54,517 bases of DNA, taken from assembly GCF_007830435.1 (NCBI RefSeq), contig NZ_VLLC01000023.1, positions 4,487 through 59,003 of the forward strand, given 5' to 3'. This stretch comes from Desulfobotulus alkaliphilus. GTDB taxonomy: Bacteria > Desulfobacterota > Desulfobacteria > Desulfobacterales > ASO4-4. This document shows, piece by piece, positions 5,664 to 17,603 of this stretch. Under the pieces are notes generated by a model, which was not told the origin of the DNA, ran no database searches, and was given only the letters and a program-made list of their open reading frames with translations. Positions within the stretch are counted from its first letter, which is position 1, and every line of letters starts with the position of its first letter. The position numbers were made by a program, and so were the translations under genes.

Positions 5664-7040
5664 TCATAGATAGGAAAACCCCACCCCAGTGGCCTCCTGC
5701 CGCACTTCGAGAATGCCGTTGCAGATGCGCTCAAAAAGCTCCCGTGCGCCGCCATAGCCCAGTATGCGGATGGAGGGGCCGCCCACCCGGTCGTGGATGG
5801 GAAAACCCACACGGATAAGCGGCGTTCTGGTTTTTCTCGACATGGCGTAGCCCTTGCTGGAGCCCATGAAAAAGTCCGGCGGATTTTCTTCGGCAAGCTT
5901 TTCAAGGGTGGCGTAATCGGCCCCTTCCACCACCTGCATGCCTTCCTGCTCCTCTTTGGAAAGAAGACTTTCCAGCGCTTTTTTCAGATGGCCGGAGCGG
6001 CTTCCTGATGCGGCCACAAGGGTTTTCACGCCGATTTCCGCAAGAAAGGGCACAAGGGCTGCCACCAGATCCTCATCCCCGAAGACCATGGCCTTGAGAC
6101 CGGAGACAATTTTATGGCTGTCCACATAGGCATCAATGAGCCGGGAGCGTTCTTCCAGCAGCATCTTGGGAATGGCCTGCCCGCTGAGATCCTGAAGAAG
6201 GGCAAGGAAGCGGTCTGTGGCCCGGATGCCCACGGGAAGCCCCTGAAAATGCGGCGCAAGGCCGGATTTTCTGCCAAGGATTGTTAAGGGGGACACCTCC
6301 CGCAGGCTGGATGCGGCCCCCAGATGCAGGCCTGCTTTTGCTTCTGCCATGTTCTGCAAACTTTCCAGAGACGCACCACCACGGGGCAGGGTCTCGTATT
6401 CCTCCCACTGGCCGCCATCGAGGGTTTCTGAGCTGTCCGGCACAAGGCAGGGGAAAAACCCCATGAGACCCACCAAATCCTTCAGATGACGCTGATCCGC
6501 AGGGGAGAGTGCTGCGGTGAAAAGGGGCAGAAGCTCTTCTCTCTTTCCGGCCATGTTCGAAGGGCCTTCCGGAAGAAGCTGCTCCACGAGGGCGGAAAGG
6601 CTTTTCCAGTAGCCTTCCCCATGGCTGCCGCCGTAGCTGGGGGTGGAGGCAAAAACGAGGGGCGGACAGTCCGGGTTGGCTTTCCGGATTTCCTTCAGCA
6701 TCATGGGCACATCGTCGCCAATGGTTTCCGAAAGGCAGGTGGAGGCAATGCCAATGATTTTAGGCCTGTACTGGCGCAGGATGTTGTCGATGGCCGTGCG
6801 CAGGTTGGCCCCGCCGCCGAAGATGGCCGTGTCCTCATGGAAGTTGGAGGAGGCGATGTCCACGGGTTCTTTGAAATGGCTGATCATGTAGCGGCGGATG
6901 TAGGTGGCGCAGCCCTGGGAACCGTGGAGCAGGGGAACGCAGCCTTCCACACCCTTGAAGGCCAGAGCCGCCCCAAGGGGAGCGCAGAGGCTGCATGCGT
7001 TTTCCGTGACGGGTTTCATGATTTCTTCGGAATGGAACAT
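5664..7040 (-). CDS. nifN: Nitrogenase FeMo-cofactor scaffold protein NifN
   Basis: A 458-residue member of the nitrogenase beta-like family. It has ENACSLCAPLGAALAFKGV, the LLHGSQGCATYIRRYMISHF segment and STCLSETIGDD, which match NifN/NifK cluster-ligand regions. It lacks the full NifK P-cluster pattern. NifN pairs with NifE as the EN scaffold on which NifB-co matures to FeMo-co. The start at 7040 is set by AAAAGGAGGCGTC immediately upstream, and the nifE stop is only 11 bp away, so nifE and nifN are co-translated. Assignment as NifN rather than a second NifK rests on position after nifE and on nifK being present separately. Confidence 0.93.
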   Translation of the reverse strand: MFHSEEIMKPVTENACSLCAPLGAALAFKGVEGCVPLLHGSQGCATYIRRYMISHFKEPVDIASSNFHEDTAIFGGGANLRTAIDNILRQYRPKIIGIASTCLSETIGDDVPMMLKEIRKANPDCPPLVFASTPSYGGSHGEGYWKSLSALVEQLLPEGPSNMAGKREELLPLFTAALSPADQRHLKDLVGLMGFFPCLVPDSSETLDGGQWEEYETLPRGGASLESLQNMAEAKAGLHLGAASSLREVSPLTILGRKSGLAPHFQGLPVGIRATDRFLALLQDLSGQAIPKMLLEERSRLIDAYVDSHKIVSGLKAMVFGDEDLVAALVPFLAEIGVKTLVAASGSRSGHLKKALESLLSKEEQEGMQVVEGADYATLEKLAEENPPDFFMGSSKGYAMSRKTRTPLIRVGFPIHDRVGGPSIRILGYGGARELFERICNGILEVRQEATGVGFSYL

Positions 7041-7051
7041 GACGCCTCCTT

Positions 7052-8407
7052 TTATATGCGGGCCTTGCGGTCAAAAAAACGGAACACGGGGCTGGTTACG
7101 GTGGCGTGCACTTCCCTTGCAAAGTTCACCATGCCCTCAAAGCCCGCCAGCGGGATTTTCCGTTCGTGGTTGTGGTCGCAGAAGCCAAGGCCAAGCTTGA
7201 AGGCAATGGGCCTTTCCTTTACCCCGCCGATGAAAAGATCGGCTCCCTTTTCCACAACGCAGGCGGAAAGCTCCAGAGGGTTGGCATCGTCCACAATGAG
7301 GGTGCCGGGTTTGCAGATCCGGGCAAGTTCCTCATATTCGTCCCCGGCTCCCGTCTGGGTGCCTGCCATGACCACCTCCATGCCCAAAGCATCCAGTGCC
7401 CGGATGAGGGAAAAGGCCTTGAAGGCCCCGCCCACATAGAGGGCGGCCTTTTTCCCCTGAAGATCCGTTTTATAGCGCTGGATCTCCGGCAGGATGGCCC
7501 GGATTTCCTCCCGCACCAGATCCTTGGTACGCTCCATGAGATCCCTCTCTTCAAAAAAGGAAGCCACATCGTAAAGGGCTTTGGCCACATCCTCGATACC
7601 GAAATAGGACACCCGGATGAAGGGAATGCCAAAGGCCTTTTCCATGTCTCTGGCAAGGCCGGTCATGGAGCCGGAGCACTGCACCACATTGAGCTTTGCC
7701 TCCGGTGCCTTCATGATTTCCTCCACCCGGCTGTCTCCGGTCATGACGGAAACCACATCGATCCCCATACGGCGGTAATAGTCTTTGATGATCCAGGCTT
7801 CGCCGCCGATGTTGAATTCCCCCAGAATATTGATGGAAAGGGGGCGGGAAGCGGGCAGAGCCTTTTGATCGAACAGGGAGAAGAGGGCGGTACAGGCGGC
7901 CTTGTACCCGTCTTTTTTGGTGCCCTTGAAACCTTCGGAATGCACGGGCCGTACGGGAATGCCCGTTTTAGCTTCCACCTTGCGGCAGACCGCCTCCACA
8001 TCGTCGCCAATGATGCCGATGATGCAGGTGCTGTACACAAAGGCGGCTTTGGGTGCATATTTTTCAATGAGGTGGAGGAGGGCGGCTTCCAGCTTTTTTT
8101 CGCCTCCGAAGATCACATCCTTTTCCTTGAGGTCGGTGGAAAAGCTTAAGCGGTGCAGCTCCGGCCCGGAAGAGAGGGCACCCCGGATGTCCCAGGTGTA
8201 GGCGGCGCAGCCGATGGGGCCGTGGACGAGATGCAGGGCATCGGCAATGGGGTAGAGCACCACCCTGGAGCCGCAGAAGACGCAGGCCCGCTGACTGACG
8301 GAGCCTGCAAGGCTTTTGGTGTCGCAGCTCAGGGTGCAGGGAGCCTCACCCGTTTTATGGATGGCGTTTTTTCTTTGTTCCAGTATGGAAAAACCTTGGT
8401 TCGGCAT
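7052..8407 (-). CDS. nifE: Nitrogenase FeMo-cofactor scaffold protein NifE
   Basis: A 451-residue alpha-like subunit of the NifEN scaffold. Recognisable segments are SQRACVFCGSRVVLYPIADA, HGPIGCAAYTWDIRG and the STCIIGIIGDDVEAV loop, all typical of NifE and homologous to the NifD Cys regions. The start at 8407 (MPNQGF) is preferred because AAAGGGGGACTT precedes it. A longer frame from 8473 lacks a site and adds an atypical N-terminus. It is followed 11 bp later by nifN. Upstream lies a 911-bp non-coding gap carrying a MITE-like element and long hairpins, so nifEN may be expressed apart from nifK. Confidence 0.95.
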   Translation of the reverse strand: MPNQGFSILEQRKNAIHKTGEAPCTLSCDTKSLAGSVSQRACVFCGSRVVLYPIADALHLVHGPIGCAAYTWDIRGALSSGPELHRLSFSTDLKEKDVIFGGEKKLEAALLHLIEKYAPKAAFVYSTCIIGIIGDDVEAVCRKVEAKTGIPVRPVHSEGFKGTKKDGYKAACTALFSLFDQKALPASRPLSINILGEFNIGGEAWIIKDYYRRMGIDVVSVMTGDSRVEEIMKAPEAKLNVVQCSGSMTGLARDMEKAFGIPFIRVSYFGIEDVAKALYDVASFFEERDLMERTKDLVREEIRAILPEIQRYKTDLQGKKAALYVGGAFKAFSLIRALDALGMEVVMAGTQTGAGDEYEELARICKPGTLIVDDANPLELSACVVEKGADLFIGGVKERPIAFKLGLGFCDHNHERKIPLAGFEGMVNFAREVHATVTSPVFRFFDRKARI

Positions 8408-8754
8408 AAGTCCCCCTTTGCTGTTAAGCCCCTCTTTTTTATGCGGGCCGTGGATGGGCAGTTTGTGGCACACAGGCCATTGTATCGACCCGGTTCCTGA
8501 ATAGGACAGCCGGGCTGTTTGTGAGTGGGCTTATTTCAGGGCGTTTTAGTGACCCTTTTGTCCTCATCCCCGGCACTCAGACTAACAAGCTTCAGCAAAT
8601 GGAACAGATCCGGTTTGTAGCCTGTGTGCCGGGCAAGGCCCCGGCCCCTCTCCCAGTGGGCTGGGCTTTACCCACAATTTTTATCAAGCCTGTTGAGTTG
8701 CAAAAATGTAGTTTTGAGGGTGTCCAAATGCTCTTTTTCCCTCACTTTCCTTAA

Positions 8755-8983
8755 TCTGATTACTACCCTGACTCAGCCACAGCTTGCTGGTCAGATTGTT
8801 GCCAGGCCTATGGTGTGCCGGCTTTAATACGGGCAGGCGCAAGGCCTGCCCTTAACGCTTGGTTTTTACGGCCCCTGTTTTGTGTAGGGGCACCCTTTAC
8901 GGGTGCCCGTAAACAAGCGTAAAATCTGGTCATATAATTTCCATGATTAAGGTTTGTATGGCTGAAAGACAGTGCTAATCAAA
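8755..8983. mobile_element. MITE-like element, copy A (229 bp)
   Basis: The ends are TCTGATTA (8755-8762) and TAATCAAA (8976-8983), an 8-bp inverted repeat with one mismatch. The pairing extends imperfectly to about 23 bp, with TCAGC at matching positions. The element is flanked by direct repeats TTCCTTAA at 8747-8754 and 8984-8991, a classical 8-bp target duplication. The interior carries two hairpins (GGGCAGGC/GCCTGCCC and GGGGCACCC/GGGTGCCC) and no gene. It is nearly identical to copy B at 10727-10951, in the same orientation. Confidence 0.85.
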
Positions 8984-8985
8984 TT

Positions 8986-9020
8986 CCTTAATGACCTTAA
9001 AGTCCTTAAGGTCATTAAGG
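8986..9020. repeat. Perfect 15-bp inverted repeat beside MITE copy A
   Basis: CCTTAATGACCTTAA (8986-9000) is the exact reverse complement of TTAAGGTCATTAAGG (9006-9020), with a 5-nt spacer. The left arm overlaps the target duplication of MITE copy A, so the element inserted at the edge of a pre-existing palindrome. Confidence 0.8.
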
Positions 9021-9142
9021 TCCTTAACGACAATACTAACGACCGGTCTCAAGGCCATAAAGGAGCAGGTAGGGCAGACACAATCTGCACCTGCGAATGA
9101 ATTGCGCAGCCACTGTTTTGTAAAGAAAGGCCCCTGTGCCTG

Positions 9143-9186
9143 CCCCTTGGGTGAGAGTTCCATAAAGAATATTCTCACCCAAGGGG
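9143..9186. repeat. Perfect 14-bp hairpin downstream of nifK
   Basis: CCCCTTGGGTGAGA (9143-9156) pairs with TCTCACCCAAGGGG (9173-9186) around a 16-nt loop. It lies 133 bp past the nifK stop in the direction of transcription. No T-run follows on the minus strand, so it is more likely an mRNA stabiliser or processing hairpin than an intrinsic terminator. Confidence 0.6.
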
Positions 9187-9318
9187 GGGAAACAGGTCTG
9201 CTGCCCACCAGTTCCTCTATGTTAGTACCCCTGATTTCATAATTCCGGACTTATGGGTAAAGATAAGCCCAGTGGGAGAGGGGAGAAATAGAGACTGTGC
9301 GCCTTTCAGACCTCCCGC

Positions 9319-10695
9319 TCAGATCACCAGCTCAAAGGATTCTTCCGGGCTGTCCCGATCCTTGCGATCCAGAAGGGCATCCAGCATTTTTTCCATGAGC
9401 CGGATGCCGCCCATGTAGCCCACCGTGGGGAAATAGCTGTGGCCCACCCGGTCAAAGATGGGAAAACCGAAGCGCACAAAGGGCAGATCCTCATCCCTTG
9501 CCATGTATTTGCCGTAGGTGTTGCCCATGAGCAGATCCACGGGCTCCTTCTTGATCCACTGGTGGAGAAGGAAGAGGTCGCCATGGGCCTTGACGTTCAC
9601 GGGCACGGGAAGGTGGGCGGTGAGTTCCCGGATTTTCTGCTCAAAGGCCTTGCCCGGTGTGCCCGTCACCACATGGACGGGGTGCATGTCCAGGGCCACG
9701 AGAAACTCCACCAGAGAGACAAGGGAGTCCGGATCGCCGAAAAGGGCCACCCGTTTCTGGTAGAACCAGGCCTGCATGTCCGTCATCACATCAAGGAGCT
9801 TTCCCCTTTCCACGGCAATGCTTTCCGGAACACTGACGCCGCCCACTTTCCTCAGTGTGTCCACAAAACGGTCTGTGGCCTGAAGACCGATGGGCAATTC
9901 CTGTGTATGGCAGGGAACCTTGCACAGGGTGTCCAGCTTGCGGGCCGCCAGATCGGAGGCCAGAGGGCCGAGGGCGATGGTGGCCTTGCTGTCTCCCGTG
10001 GCCTTCATTTCCGCAACCGTCACGCCGCCCTTGGGGTACATACGGAATTTTCCCGTCTGGGGTGCATTCAGCACATTGGAGGTGTCGGGAAAGACGATGG
10101 TTTTCAGGCCCATGAGACTGGCCATGCGCTTGATTTCCTCCATGTCCGAAGGTTCCACGTATCCGGGAATGATGTTGAGGGTTTCATTCCTTTTGCCCGT
10201 GGATTCGGAAAAGGCCTTCACCATGCCCTGCACCATGTTGGCGAATCCCGTGACATGGGAGCCCACATAGCTGGGGGTGGAGGCGTGGATCACGTATTTT
10301 CCTTCGGGCACCTTGCCTTCGTCTTTCGCCTTGATGGCGATCTGGTTGAGGTCGTCACCGATGGTTTCCGAAAGGCAGGTGGTGTGTACGGCAATGACAT
10401 CAGGCTCATAGACCGTGAAGATGTTGTCAATGGCCTGAAGGAGGTTGGCCTGCCCGCCGAAGACGGAAGCGCCTTCGGTAAAGGAGCTGGTGGCTGCCAT
10501 CACGGGTTCTCTGTAGTGGCGGGTGAGGGCCGAGCGGTGATAGGCGCAGCAGCCCTGGGAACCGTGGCTGTGGGGCAGGCAGCCGTGGAGGCCCAGCGCC
10601 GCATACATGGCGCCGATGGGCTGACAGGTTTTGGCCGGGTTGATCATGAGTCCCGTGCGTTCCACGGGTTCTGCGGAAGTATGACGGAGGAGCAT
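9319..10695 (-). CDS. nifK: Nitrogenase MoFe protein beta subunit NifK
   Basis: A 458-residue NifK. P-cluster ligand regions are visible: Cys in PAKTCQPIGAMYAALG, Cys in SHGSQGCCAYHRSALTRHY and Cys in HTTCLSETIGDDL. A THVTGFANMV-like region (STPSYVGSHVTGFANM) follows. NifK forms the alpha2beta2 MoFe protein with NifD and shares the P-cluster with it. It lacks the about 50-residue N-terminal extension of Azotobacter NifK, which is usual for the shorter clostridial/deltaproteobacterial type. The start at 10695 has AAGGAAAGGACATTCCC upstream. Unusually, nifD and nifK are 318 bp apart, separated by a terminator-like hairpin and a MITE-like insertion. A second MITE copy lies downstream. Confidence 0.97.
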   Translation of the reverse strand: MLLRHTSAEPVERTGLMINPAKTCQPIGAMYAALGLHGCLPHSHGSQGCCAYHRSALTRHYREPVMAATSSFTEGASVFGGQANLLQAIDNIFTVYEPDVIAVHTTCLSETIGDDLNQIAIKAKDEGKVPEGKYVIHASTPSYVGSHVTGFANMVQGMVKAFSESTGKRNETLNIIPGYVEPSDMEEIKRMASLMGLKTIVFPDTSNVLNAPQTGKFRMYPKGGVTVAEMKATGDSKATIALGPLASDLAARKLDTLCKVPCHTQELPIGLQATDRFVDTLRKVGGVSVPESIAVERGKLLDVMTDMQAWFYQKRVALFGDPDSLVSLVEFLVALDMHPVHVVTGTPGKAFEQKIRELTAHLPVPVNVKAHGDLFLLHQWIKKEPVDLLMGNTYGKYMARDEDLPFVRFGFPIFDRVGHSYFPTVGYMGGIRLMEKMLDALLDRKDRDSPEESFELVI

Positions 10696-10726
10696 GGGAA
10701 TGTCCTTTCCTTGGATAATAAAAAAT

Positions 10727-10951
10727 TCTGATTACTCACCTGACTCAGCTAGAGTTTGCTGGTCAGGTTGTTGCCAGGCCTATAGTGCGGGTTTTAATAC
10801 GGGCAGGCGCAAGGCCTGCCCCTACGAATGGTTTTTACGGCCCTGTTTTGTGTAGGGGCACCCTTTACGGGTGCCCACTGGCATGCGTAAAATCTGGTTA
10901 TATAATTTCCAGGATTAAGGTTTGTATGGCTGAAAGACTGTGTTAATCAGA
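10727..10951. mobile_element. MITE-like element, copy B (225 bp)
   Basis: Perfect terminal inverted repeats TCTGATTA (10727-10734) and TAATCAGA (10944-10951) are flanked by the 8-bp direct repeat TAAAAAAT at 10719-10726 and 10952-10959. The interior matches copy A (8755-8983) along nearly its whole length, including both GC-rich hairpins. There is no coding capacity, so transposition would need a transposase from elsewhere in the genome. It sits between nifD and nifK, inside the T-tract that follows the nifD terminator-like hairpin. Confidence 0.87.
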
Positions 10952-10952
10952 T

Positions 10953-11002
10953 AAAAAATTGAACCCCCGTGGGAGCGGGGAGGTTTCCGACTCCCACGGG
11001 GG
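10953..11002 (-). terminator. Terminator-like hairpin after nifD
   Basis: Read on the minus strand, a perfect 12-bp stem (CCCCCGTGGGAG at 11002-10991 and its complement at 10975-10964, 15-nt loop) lies just after the nifD stop. TTCAATTTTTTAT follows it. This is a strong intrinsic-terminator profile in the middle of the nif genes. It may attenuate read-through to nifK or mark the nifD 3' end after processing. Confidence 0.75.
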
Positions 11003-11013
11003 CCACGGGCCTC

Positions 11014-12651
11014 TCAGGCAACCCAGGCGTAGTTGGCGGAGAGTTCAGGTTCAGCGGCCCATGGAGGCGTGATATAAGACCAGATCTTGGCGTTCACCAT
11101 GCGCTCGATTTCTTCATAAAAATTGATGGCTCCCTTAAAGCCCGCATAGGGCCCGCCGGAGTCGTAGGAATGGAGCTGTTTCATGGGAATGCCGCTCTTC
11201 TGGATGGCGTACTTTTCCTTGATGCCAGCGCAGAAGATGTCCGGCTTGAACATTTCAATGAGCTTTTCCGTTTCAAAATGACTGATGTCGTCAATGACCA
11301 GGGTGTTTTCCTTCATGTCTGGCATGAGTCCGTCATATTCCCGAAAGGCCAGCCCCTCGCTTTCCAGCTTTTTCAGGCTTTCCTCATCCTTTCTCGGTGC
11401 GTAACGTTTTGGATCCGGCGTGATGTGCAGCTCTTCGATGTTGCGGGAATCCGCATCCACCTTGATGCTGGGCAGTACCCTGCGGCCTTCGTAGTCGTCC
11501 CTGTGGCCGAACTCATAACCCGCTGCAAGGGTTTCCATGCCCAGCTCACCGAAAAGATCCTGATAATGATGGGCGCGGGAACCGCCCACAAAGAGCATGG
11601 CCCGCTTGCCCTCACACCGGGGCTTTGCCTTTTCCAGAGAGGCTTTTACCGCTGGCATTTCTGCTGCAATCACTTCTTCCACCTTTGCCTTTAGTTCCTC
11701 ATCCTCAAAATACTGGGCGATTTTGCGTAAAGACTTGGCTGTGGATTCCGCACCAATGAAATTCACCTTGATCCAGGGAATCCCGAACTTGCTTTCCATC
11801 ATCTCCGCCATGTAGTTGATGGAGCGGTGGCACATGATGGCATTGAGATCCGCCGTGTGGGAGTTGGCAAAATGATCGATGGACGAGTTCCCCGAATAGG
11901 TGGAGACCAGGCTGATGCCGCAGGCATCGAGAATCCGTTCGATCTCAAAGGAATCGCCGCCGATGTTGTATTCGCCGAGAAGGTTGATGCGGAACTTTCC
12001 CTTGCCGATGGTGTCGTCCAGCCCCACCACATGGGTGAAGATGCCGTTGTTGGCGATGTGATGGCCTGCGGACTGGCTGACACCCTTGTAGCCCTCGCAA
12101 CTGAAGGCAAAGACATTGATGCCGAGCTTTTCTTTCATTTCACGGGCCACGGCGTGAACATCATCGCCGATGAGACCCACGGGACAGGTGGAAAAAACGG
12201 AGATGGCTTTGGGATGAAAGAGATCAAAGGCTTCCTGAATGGCCTGTTTGAGCTTTTTTTCTCCCCCGAACACAATGTGCTCATCCTGCATGTCCGTGGT
12301 GAAGCAATAATTCATGAAGTTTTCGGCGGTATCGGATTCGGGTCGGGTCTGGTTGCGGCGGGTGAGCCAGGAATAGTAGGCGCAGCCCACAGGCCCATGG
12401 GTGATGTTCACGATGTCCCGTGTGGGGCCCAGCACAACGCCCTTGCATCCGGCGTAGGAACATCCCCTCTGGGTGATGATGCCCGGAACCGTGCGCATAT
12501 TGGCACCCACTTCCGGCACCTTGCCCGTGCTGTCATTGCGGTTGACGAGAATCTGTTTGGCCCGTTTCCGGGCCACCTTGGTGGGGTATTTGGCAAGGAT
12601 CTCGGCCTTTATCTTTTCAAGCTTTGCAGCCGTATTTTTTTCGTCGCTCAT
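11014..12651 (-). CDS. nifD: Nitrogenase MoFe protein alpha subunit NifD
   Basis: A 545-residue NifD. P-cluster ligands are in RGCSYAGCKGVV, HGPVGCAYYSW and STCPVGLIGDD. FeMo-co ligands are the Cys of IMCHRSINYM and the His of LHSYDSGGPY. The Gln and His that line the active site are present in GVSQSAGHHIAN. This pattern marks a molybdenum enzyme. Residues about 390-440 are a charged insertion of roughly 50 residues that Azotobacter NifD lacks and clostridial-type NifD has. The start at 12651 (MSDEKN) is chosen for AAAAGGAAACGACC upstream; an in-frame start at 12669 has no site. It is preceded by nifI2 at 36 bp and followed by a strong hairpin. Confidence 0.97.
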   Translation of the reverse strand: MSDEKNTAAKLEKIKAEILAKYPTKVARKRAKQILVNRNDSTGKVPEVGANMRTVPGIITQRGCSYAGCKGVVLGPTRDIVNITHGPVGCAYYSWLTRRNQTRPESDTAENFMNYCFTTDMQDEHIVFGGEKKLKQAIQEAFDLFHPKAISVFSTCPVGLIGDDVHAVAREMKEKLGINVFAFSCEGYKGVSQSAGHHIANNGIFTHVVGLDDTIGKGKFRINLLGEYNIGGDSFEIERILDACGISLVSTYSGNSSIDHFANSHTADLNAIMCHRSINYMAEMMESKFGIPWIKVNFIGAESTAKSLRKIAQYFEDEELKAKVEEVIAAEMPAVKASLEKAKPRCEGKRAMLFVGGSRAHHYQDLFGELGMETLAAGYEFGHRDDYEGRRVLPSIKVDADSRNIEELHITPDPKRYAPRKDEESLKKLESEGLAFREYDGLMPDMKENTLVIDDISHFETEKLIEMFKPDIFCAGIKEKYAIQKSGIPMKQLHSYDSGGPYAGFKGAINFYEEIERMVNAKIWSYITPPWAAEPELSANYAWVA

Positions 12652-12687
12652 GGTCGTTTCCTTTTTCATGGGGTGGATTTTGCGGCC

Positions 12688-16250: not shown

Positions 16251-17603
16251 CTACCGAGTTTTTTGATGGTCTGAAACACCTTTGACAAAACAGTATCCGT
16301 CCTTGTCCATGGGTGCGGCAAAGCCCCGGAGAAGATCCACAAACCAGAAGCTGATGTGGCTGCGGCCATCGCTGCTCCATACCCAGCCCTGCCGGGGATC
16401 AAGGGGGGACTTCCTGCAGAAATCCTCCGGTGTCATGGGCTGGCGGGTAAGGGAGAAAAGTTCCGGAACCGTAGGAAGTCGCCATGACCTGCGCTGGCCC
16501 GCAGCCCTGTCATTGAGCATTTTTATCCATTTGTCTGCCCCTTCCCTGTTCAGGGGAAAGGGACTTCCTGCCCTCTCCCAGAGAAGTCCTGTGTTTTTGT
16601 CATGGATGAGGTCTTCTTCGGGTCCGGGAATAAAATCATTGTAAACTGAACGGGCTGGCCGGAAAAGGGGATCTGCTTCCAGCATGTCTGCCAGCGGGCC
16701 ACGGACGCCGGTACGCAGGGGGTGACTTCTCAGTCTGAGGAGGCCATGGCTGCTTATTTCTTCTTCGCTAAAGGGGAAGGCGCATTCCTTTGCCCTGTAG
16801 TCTTTCCATGCAAGCGCCAGATCATTCAGGGCCTTGAGCATTTGCTCCGCACCGTCAAAGCGATGGTCGGGATTTTTGGCAAGGCATTTTTTCAGAAAAT
16901 CCTTCCACAGCTCTTCGGGTTCAGGCAGCAGGATTTTTTCTTTGGGATCTTCCGGAGGAAAGTGGCCCGTGAGCATGCGGCAGAACACCACGCCTGCTGC
17001 ATACATATCCGATCTTTCATCGGCGCTGTCAGCATCCCTTTCCTGTTCGGGAGGGGCATACCCGGGAGAGCCCACCTTGATATTTTCCGGTGTGCCTGTG
17101 GTTTCCCTGCGCAGGCGGCTCAGGCCGAAATCACCGAGAATCAGTCTGTCTTCATCATCCATGAGCAGGTTCCAGGGCTTGATGTCCCTGTGGATCATAC
17201 CGTGGAAGTGCAGGCAGTGCAGTGCCCTCAGAAGCTGTTTCATGTAATGGATGGCCGTATCCGGATCAAGGGTTCTGCAGGGGGCCTCCATATCCCCATG
17301 CTCTCCCATGATGAGGCCAAGGCTTCTGGAATAGCAGGGCATGGTATAAAAGCTGATTTCTCCGCAATGCAGGTCTTCCACGCCTGCCACATTGGGGTGG
17401 TGCAGCATGGCCATTTTCCGGGCTTCTTCCATGAACATGGAAAGCAGGCGTTTTTCTCCTACGGAAGACAGAAGAAAGGGGTGGGGGAGAAAAAGCTTGG
17501 CCGCAAGAATCCTTTGGATTTCAGGATGCCGTACCCTGAGAACCCGGCCCATGCCTCCCCGGCCAAGTTCCCCTGCAATCTGGTATTTTCCTATGGTTCT
17601 CAT
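16251..17603 (-). CDS. Serine/threonine protein kinase with C-terminal DUF1566/Lcl-like domain
   Basis: A 450-residue protein. Residues about 8-270 are a Hanks-type kinase: glycine loop GRGGMGRVLRVRH, catalytic Lys in LAAKLFL, IHRDIKPWNLLMD, GDFGLSRLR and a GSPGYAPPEQ activation segment. There is no transmembrane helix. From about 330, DLIHDKNTGLLWERAG, SWRLPTVPELFSLT and WVWSSDGRSHISFWFVDL match the DUF1566 (Lcl) domain, usually a secreted or sensory module. The start at 17603 has AGGAAAAA upstream. The metallophosphoesterase stop is 7 bp before it. Targets are unknown. A DUF1566 domain on a cytoplasmic kinase suggests a ligand- or partner-binding sensor, which is inference. Confidence 0.9.
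   Translation of the reverse strand: MRTIGKYQIAGELGRGGMGRVLRVRHPEIQRILAAKLFLPHPFLLSSVGEKRLLSMFMEEARKMAMLHHPNVAGVEDLHCGEISFYTMPCYSRSLGLIMGEHGDMEAPCRTLDPDTAIHYMKQLLRALHCLHFHGMIHRDIKPWNLLMDDEDRLILGDFGLSRLRRETTGTPENIKVGSPGYAPPEQERDADSADERSDMYAAGVVFCRMLTGHFPPEDPKEKILLPEPEELWKDFLKKCLAKNPDHRFDGAEQMLKALNDLALAWKDYRAKECAFPFSEEEISSHGLLRLRSHPLRTGVRGPLADMLEADPLFRPARSVYNDFIPGPEEDLIHDKNTGLLWERAGSPFPLNREGADKWIKMLNDRAAGQRRSWRLPTVPELFSLTRQPMTPEDFCRKSPLDPRQGWVWSSDGRSHISFWFVDLLRGFAAPMDKDGYCFVKGVSDHQKTR

What the first reader, a model, noticed from the sequence alone, without database searches (positions are those of the whole stretch)
8747..10959. Two copies of a MITE-like element with 8-bp target duplications flank nifK
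Elements at 8755-8983 and 10727-10951 share terminal TCTGATTA/TAATCAGA and two inner hairpins, and each has its own distinct 8-bp duplication (TTCCTTAA; TAAAAAAT). They lie in the same orientation on both sides of nifK. Recombination between them would remove nifK precisely, and each alters the nif transcript. The different target duplications show two separate insertions, not a segmental duplication.
Basis: seen in the sequence. Interest (0 to 1): 0.6.

Follow-up and report, generated by a model that had tools for sequence, protein, structure and literature searches.

The report
Two IS1595-type MITEs beside nifK
Two short "hitch-hiker" transposons, members of a family with dozens of copies in this bacterium, inserted independently in the gaps on either side of a nitrogen-fixation gene; this is ordinary mobile DNA, and the type of transposon that probably moved it could be identified.

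Summary
Elements at 8755-8983 and 10727-10951 are 88.5% identical, lie in the same orientation and carry different exact 8-bp duplications; nifK (9319-10695, minus strand) lies between them. They belong to a high-copy MITE family: of 46 distinct copies with both ends examined in this genome, 30 have an exact 8-bp, 87% A+T target duplication. Both same-genus genomes tested hold the family; no full element was found in 55 other genomes of the order. Both sister genomes lack both nif copies. Site 1 is a textbook empty site; site 2 is clean only on the nifD side, because 81 bp of spacer is also missing. One sister has its own nif-cluster insertion. No IS1595 catalytic domain was found in the genus, but one decayed copy survives in a sister species. 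Unexpectedly, the nifK-nifE spacer is itself another dispersed repeat, shared by all three species, and the first MITE lies inside it. Two copies this close are about what chance gives. Loss of nifK and effects on transcripts remain hypothetical. New member of a known kind.

The parts
8747..8754 (.). target-site duplication 1, left (TTCCTTAA)
   Evidence: single copy at the empty site in G002 (TTCCTTAA) and G001 (TTCCTTCA)
8755..8983 (+). MITE copy 1 (229 bp) in the nifK-nifE spacer, inserted inside an older dispersed repeat
8831..8851 (+). inner hairpin 1 of copy 1 (GGGCAGGC-GCAAG-GCCTGCCC)
   Evidence: 7 of its 8 stem pairs unchanged in 28 of 28 aligned copies
8888..8908 (+). inner hairpin 2 of copy 1 (GGGCACCC-TTTAC-GGGTGCCC)
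8984..8991 (.). target-site duplication 1, right (TTCCTTAA)
10719..10726 (.). target-site duplication 2, left (TAAAAAAT)
10727..10951 (+). MITE copy 2 (225 bp) in the nifD-nifK spacer
10801..10821 (+). inner hairpin 1 of copy 2
10856..10876 (+). inner hairpin 2 of copy 2
10952..10959 (.). target-site duplication 2, right (TAAAAAAT)
8645..9283 (.). older dispersed repeat (about 400 bp without the MITE) with 33-bp imperfect inverted ends, filling most of the nifK-nifE spacer; interrupted by MITE copy 1
   Evidence: (I1)
9319..10695 (-). nifK, intact reading frame, between the two MITEs
   Evidence: TIGR01286 445.5 bits
11014..12669 (-). nifD, upstream of MITE copy 2 in the direction of transcription
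   Evidence: TIGR01282 687 bits
7052..8473 (-). nifE, downstream of MITE copy 1 in the direction of transcription
   Evidence: TIGR01283 625.8 bits

Best explanation
The two elements are non-autonomous transposons (MITEs) of the IS1595 family, with ISPma1-like ends. They have no transposase gene. An IS1595-type transposase, acting in trans, recognised their 24-bp imperfect inverted ends (TCTGATTACyAC-N6-TCAGCC) and inserted them by a staggered cut at A+T-rich sites, leaving 8-bp duplications. The two nif copies are two independent insertions into spacers of the nif cluster, most simply after the split from the sister species, and are tolerated because they lie between genes. Shown: copies, ends, duplications, an empty site, matching transposase-bearing elements elsewhere, and a decayed IS1595 gene in a sister species. 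Inferred: that an IS1595 transposase did the moving, that it has since been lost from this lineage, and neutrality for nif expression.
For:: 40 element matches of 81-100% plus one fragment in the own genome (157 candidates, 40 scored, so a lower bound); a left-end pattern at 60 places and a pattern just inside the right end at 46, at up to 3 mismatches; 0 for the reversed controls; 46 distinct copies with both ends: 30 exact 8-bp duplications, 6 with 7/8, 4 with 6/8, 6 with 5/8 or fewer; duplications 87% A+T, window G+C 52%; both sister genomes lack both copies; site 1 shows one target copy; the same element in G001 and G002. Mobiliser: a collection scan for the end pattern gave 5 contigs; in one (L120) the end lies 71 bp before a transposase frame with the IS1595 zinc ribbon (PF12760, 1.2e-16). 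L124 (same order) is a 1,064-bp element with such ends on both sides of a 338-aa frame that is 56% identical to the L120 transposase. Ends alike to the MITE ends at, of 24 positions: L120 19-21, L124 18-21, L163 16-20, L166 15-18, L162 15-17, L165 13-17; five more distant IS1595 elements 6-13. L162, L163 (annotated ISPma1 family), L165 and L166 have exact 8-bp duplications and both IS1595 domains. A relic of the same gene and part of its end lies in sister genome G001 (L152; alignment score 88, best of 500 dinucleotide shuffles 29).
Against: No IS1595 catalytic domain (PF12762) was found in G000, G001 or G002, and the relic has no counterpart in G000 or G002 (best E 0.056 and 0.0076, over 21-30 bases). 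So the helper is not seen in the genome itself; 18 of the 20 shortest contigs fetched read N throughout, so it could be hidden there. The four plasmid ISPma1-like elements start with C, the MITE with T. No similarity of the MITE interior to the IS elements was shown. L124 has no 8-bp duplication. In the test 9 of 20 IS1595 loci gave a convincing end pair with an exact duplication; 8 gave none and 3 were too short to test. At site 2 the left side of the empty site is obscured by the loss of 81 bp. 16 of 46 copies lack an exact duplication.
Confidence: 0.91

Rival explanations
1. The two copies came from one segmental duplication around nifK.
For: Same orientation, 1,972 bp apart, 88.5% identical.
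Against: Different target duplications; the repeat stops at the ends; each copy is closer to copies elsewhere (93.3% and 92.5%) than to the other; both sites lack the element in two relatives.
Confidence: 0.01
2. MITEs of another IS family with 8-bp duplications, mobilised by an unseen transposase.
For: No intact IS1595 gene seen in the genus; 18 short contigs unreadable.
Against: The MITE ends are alike to those of IS1595/ISPma1-like elements at 13-21 of 24 positions without gaps, and an IS1595 relic is present in a sister species.
Confidence: 0.06
3. The elements are retained because they act in the nif transcript: hairpins protect or process the mRNA between nifD, nifK and nifE, copy 1 partly terminates transcription before nifE, or a promoter-like box drives antisense RNA into nifK and nifD.
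For: Strong RNA folds on the transcribed strand (z -5.6 and -5.1); hairpin 1 stem almost invariant; a TATAAT-type match at the same place in both copies on the plus strand (4 promoter-like sites in the stretch, 1.3 expected by shuffling); at the edge of copy 1 a stem in the transcribed strand (9020-8986) gains a T-rich tail from the MITE end, and the scan of the MITE-free G002 locus shows no such site there; a third insertion in the nif cluster of G002.
Against: The same element sits next to many other genes; both relatives do without it at these sites; the density of copies makes a pair near nifK unsurprising; terminator-like sites in the stretch are 5 against 3.4 expected, and consensus matches are not evidence of function.
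Confidence: 0.07

Closest known systems
IS1595 family, ISPma1-like elements (annotated ISPma1 family in a Photobacterium toruni plasmid, L163)
   Same: 24-bp ends of the form YCTGATTA...CAGCC and 8-bp A+T-rich target duplications
   Different: Those carry a zinc-ribbon DDE transposase of 307-315 aa and are about 1 kb; the element here is 225-229 bp without a gene, and starts with T where the four plasmid elements start with C
Prokaryotic MITEs in general (e.g. the 18 new archaeal MITEs of PMC3852290; passages read)
   Same: High copy number, ends like an autonomous IS, direct repeats, no reading frame, partner IS hard to find
   Different: This family, its ends and its host genus; the only partner seen in the genus is a decayed gene in a sister species
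MITEs in metabolic genes of Ca. Thiomargarita nelsonii (PMC4853749; passages read)
   Same: Widely repeated MITEs in genes of central metabolism, parent IS family not found
   Different: There one MITE lies within hupL with 10-bp repeats; here both copies are between genes, the nif reading frames are intact, and a parent family is proposed
MITEs and nif-operon excision elements of Anabaena sp. 90 (PMC3542288; passages read)
   Same: A diazotroph with many MITEs (147), mostly between genes, and mobile DNA in its nif operon
   Different: The nif insertions there are 5.9-80 kb excision elements with site-specific recombinases; the passages shown mention no MITE in the nif operon

Membership tests
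MITE (non-autonomous IS derivative) | short, repeated, terminal inverted repeats | tested here: met
   46 distinct copies of 196-230 bp with both ends
MITE (non-autonomous IS derivative) | target-site duplication of constant length | tested here: met
   30 of 46 exact 8 bp; 0-1 of 46 at shifted registers; 0 of 46 at 9 bp
MITE (non-autonomous IS derivative) | no transposase gene inside | tested here: met
   no reading frame of 100 aa or more contained in either copy
MITE (non-autonomous IS derivative) | insertion shown by empty sites in relatives | tested here: met
   site 1 clean in 2 of 2 relatives; site 2 empty in 2 of 2 but its left side altered by a deletion of 81 bp
IS1595 family (as the mobiliser) | ends shared with elements that encode an IS1595 transposase | tested here: met
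   L120, L124, L162, L163, L165, L166: 13-21 of 24 positions
IS1595 family (as the mobiliser) | usually 8-bp duplications (introduction passages of PMC8101967) | tested here: met
IS1595 family (as the mobiliser) | intact IS1595 transposase in the same genome | tested here: inconclusive
   PF12762 in 0 of 3 genomes of the genus; one decayed gene in G001; 18 short contigs unreadable
IS1595 family (as the mobiliser) | transposition of this element by that transposase | not testable with these tools
   needs a mobility assay

The most novel reading that the evidence does not exclude
The MITE family acts as a portable regulatory cassette: its near-invariant hairpins, its shared TATAAT-type box and the terminator-like edge of copy 1, inserted repeatedly in the nif cluster of this genus (two sites here, one in a sister species), tune the ratio of NifD, NifK and NifE through RNA processing, partial termination or antisense transcription.
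Probability: 0.07. Interest if true: 0.5.

Novelty: new member of a known kind. Interest (0 to 1): 0.22.

Why it matters
It ties an orphan, high-copy repeat of an unnamed nitrogen-fixing genus to a defined transposase family, and shows lineage-specific insertion into a nif cluster (absent from two sister species). It is a tidy example of a MITE family that seems to have outlived its parent IS. If the elements did affect nif expression, they would be natural variants for measuring how spacer RNA structure sets nitrogenase subunit ratios.

Tried and rejected
Segmental duplication: rejected. A full-length parent IS in the own genome: end matches were listed (the list is cut at 100 places), 20 stretches around left ends outside the first copies were fetched and searched for partner ends, and reading frames were listed in 4 of those 20 and in 2 later ones (L079, L080). 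The wider-spaced inward pairs L069 (1.6 kb) and L080 (2.4 kb) and the outward pair L079 enclose frames that do not look like transposases (read by eye, no search). An IS1380-type transposase frame on a short contig (named from recall) was set aside, because by recall that family has shorter duplications. Known structured RNA: no Rfam match in the window at gathering scores. Hotspot near nifK: expected pairs within 1,972 bp if random are 46x45/2 x 2x1972/4003228, about 1.0 (own arithmetic); seen 2 (703 bp apart on another contig, and this pair); within 3 kb there are 4 pairs, all in the same orientation, which I did not follow up. Literature: searches for IS1595 with MITE, IS1595 or ISPma1 (15 of 180 listed), MITE with nitrogenase or nif operon (15 of 141 listed), MITE with Desulfobacter, MITE with operon and hairpin terms (12 of 79 listed) and MITE with nifK (6 of 6 listed): no paper describing this element or a MITE in a nif operon was seen in those listings. 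Passages only were read in PMC3852290, PMC8101967, PMC12561309, PMC4853749 and PMC3542288; the IS1595 family paper of Siguier et al. 2009 was seen only as a reference.
Full report
What is there. The window is contig stretch G000:C24:4487-59003 of a 4.0-Mb, 95-contig genome. On its minus strand lies a nif cluster: nifH, two PII-type genes (matches below the curated cut-off), nifD (11014-12669), nifK (9319-10695), nifE (7052-8473), a nifN-like gene (5664-7040, below cut-off) and nifB. Two copies of a short element sit in the nifD-nifK spacer (10727-10951) and the nifK-nifE spacer (8755-8983), both on the plus strand, with duplications TAAAAAAT and TTCCTTAA.

Copy number and ends. A search of the own genome scored 40 of 157 candidates and found 40 element matches of 81-100% identity plus one fragment. 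The left-end pattern occurs 60 times and a pattern just inside the right end 46 times at up to 3 mismatches, with no match of the reversed controls. From 79 own-genome sources (the window and 78 fetched stretches; duplicate loci and the short contigs were left out) 46 distinct copies with both ends were extracted, 196-230 bp long. Of these, 30 have an exact 8-bp duplication, 6 differ at one base, 4 at two, 6 at three or more. Duplications are 87% A+T. Control pairings of flanks from different copies give 4 exact matches in 2070, and shifts by -3 to +3 bases give 0, 0, 0, 1, 0, 0 of 46. Copies are 77-97% identical to the consensus; nearest-neighbour identity has a median of 92.7% and a maximum of 99.1%, so the family is mostly not freshly amplified. 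Read inward, the consensus ends are TCTGATTACTACCCTGACTCAGCCA on the left and TCTGATTACCACTGTCTTTCAGCCA on the right, alike at 18 of the first 24 positions.

Independence of the two insertions. Copy 2 is closest to a copy on another contig (93.3%), copy 1 likewise (92.5%); the two nif copies are 88.5% identical to each other. In the two same-genus genomes the nif cluster is collinear and both copies are missing. At site 1 the relatives have one target copy (TTCCTTAA in G002, TTCCTTCA in G001) in otherwise matching flanks. At site 2 the nifD-side flank matches across the duplication, but on the nifK side 81 bp of spacer present in both relatives is missing here (93 bases against 12 between the same landmarks), so the pre-insertion site cannot be read exactly. 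G002 has an insertion of its own between the PII-type genes and nifH, flanked by AAAAATAA on both sides. No full element was found in the 55 same-order genomes outside the genus, with at most 13 candidates scored per genome; two of them gave short hairpin matches only.

The mobiliser. One scan of the genome collection with TCTGATTACYACNNTNNNTCAGCCA gave 5 contigs. L117 is a match inside a long reading frame and probably chance. L118 is a 299-bp element with paired ends and an exact duplication TTATCGTA, a MITE of the same type in a Desulfurivibrionaceae assembly. L119 is a 140-bp pair without a duplication. L121 looks like a short element with a degraded right end. L120 has the end followed by a transposase frame with the IS1595 zinc ribbon. 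With that 160-aa peptide, 44 of 194 genomes of the order gave a match. L124 among them is a complete 1,064-bp element, ends TCTGATTACCAC...TCAGCC and TCTGATTACCAT...TCAGCC, with a 338-aa frame; its flanks show no duplication. L122, L123 and L134 have similar left ends. Of 20 IS1595 loci tested for paired ends, 9 gave a pair with an exact 8-bp duplication: L128, L129, L132, L135, L136, L162, L163, L165 and L166; 3 were too short to test and 8 gave nothing convincing, L124 among them because its element lies outside the search range used. The four plasmid elements L162, L163, L165 and L166 have CCTGATTA...CAGC ends and both IS1595 domains. Gap-free comparison with the MITE ends gives 13-21 alike positions of 24 for L120, L124 and these four, and 6-13 for L128, L129, L132, L135 and L136, so the end sequence points to the ISPma1-like branch. 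In the genus no PF12762 match was found, but G001 carries a decayed copy: part of the left end and the first ~230 bp of the gene align with L120 (score 88; 500 shuffles of the target reach at most 29). The relic has no counterpart in G000 or G002. The simplest history is that the parent IS was active in the genus, seeded the MITEs, and decayed. IS1595 members are described as usually having 8-bp duplications (PMC8101967, passages), and ISApl4 of that family as preferring A/T-rich ones (PMC12561309, passages).

Where copies go. In joined empty sites 37 of 46 insertions are not spanned by a mechanical reading frame of 150 aa or more; the 9 spanned include the nifD-nifK site, where the frame is only an upstream extension of nifK, so 9 overstates genic insertions. 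Insertion between genes in A+T-rich DNA is the common pattern.

Possible effects. The transcribed (minus) strand of both copies folds better than shuffles (z -5.57 and -5.12). Seven of eight stem pairs of hairpin 1 are unchanged in 28 of 28 aligned copies, while covariation is almost absent (2 of 56 pairs with a two-sided change). This shows conservation, not a selected RNA structure. A promoter-like box with TATAAT lies at the same place in both copies on the plus strand, antisense to nif. No terminator-like site lies inside either copy, but one lies at the edge of copy 1: a stem at 9020-8986 on the transcribed strand is followed by AATTTGATTA, whose T-rich part is the MITE end. The same scan of the G002 locus, which lacks the MITE, reports no site there. 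The scan finds 5 terminator-like sites where 3.4 are expected, so this is a hint only. A crossover between the copies would remove nifK with about 335 bp of spacer and leave one hybrid element; the longest identical run is 36 bp and none of the three genomes shows the deletion.

Side finding. Most of the nifK-nifE spacer without the MITE, 8645-9283, is itself a repeat of about 400 bp with 33-bp imperfect inverted ends. Three other long copies exist in this genome (C9, C12, C18) and one in G002 (C1), at 83-91% identity, and the nif copy is shared by all three species. MITE copy 1 is therefore nested in an older repeat. No target duplication of that repeat was recognised. It also carries a GGGCAGGC...GCCTGCCC palindrome, as the MITE does (L198).

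Verdict. Confirmed observation, ordinary kind: a new MITE family, most likely of the IS1595 (ISPma1-like) type.

Noticed in passing
window 8645-9283; L197, L198, L200, L203: Most of the nifK-nifE spacer is another dispersed repeat (about 400 bp, imperfect 33-bp inverted ends CCCCTCTCCC...GGGAGAGGGG), present at the same place in both sister species and elsewhere in the genome; its class and target duplication were not resolved.
   Followed up: partly
genome-wide; window 8831-8851 and 10801-10821: The hairpin arms GGGCAGGC...GCCTGCCC occur at 95 places in this genome (6 in G001, 30 in G002, 18 in G040, 1 each in three more), with several different loops and also in the other repeat family (L198); loop and hairpin differ between MITE variants with the same ends (L030, L031, L053). 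Why the arms are shared by different repeats is unexplained.
   Followed up: partly
window 8986-9020: MITE copy 1 supplies a T-rich tail to a stem on the nif-transcribed strand, giving a terminator-like site between nifK and nifE that the scan does not report in the MITE-free G002 locus.
   Followed up: partly
L053:1675-2015: A longer variant of about 340 bp with the same ends but different inner hairpins.
   Followed up: partly
window 10700-10719 against L077/L078: 81 bp of the nifD-nifK spacer present in both sister species is missing in this genome next to MITE copy 2.
   Followed up: partly
L152:2829-3180 (G001): Decayed IS1595 transposase gene with part of its left end, the only trace of a parent IS found in the genus.
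   Followed up: yes
L118:6030-6328: A 299-bp MITE with the same ends and exact duplication TTATCGTA in a Desulfurivibrionaceae assembly, so MITEs of this branch occur beyond the genus.
   Followed up: partly
own genome, C17 and C4: All four MITE pairs within 3 kb of each other, the nif pair included, lie in the same orientation; possibly chance.
   Followed up: no
window 16251-17603, minus strand: A Ser/Thr protein kinase-like gene near the ammonium transporter and nif genes (best match PknB-type, below cut-off).
   Followed up: no
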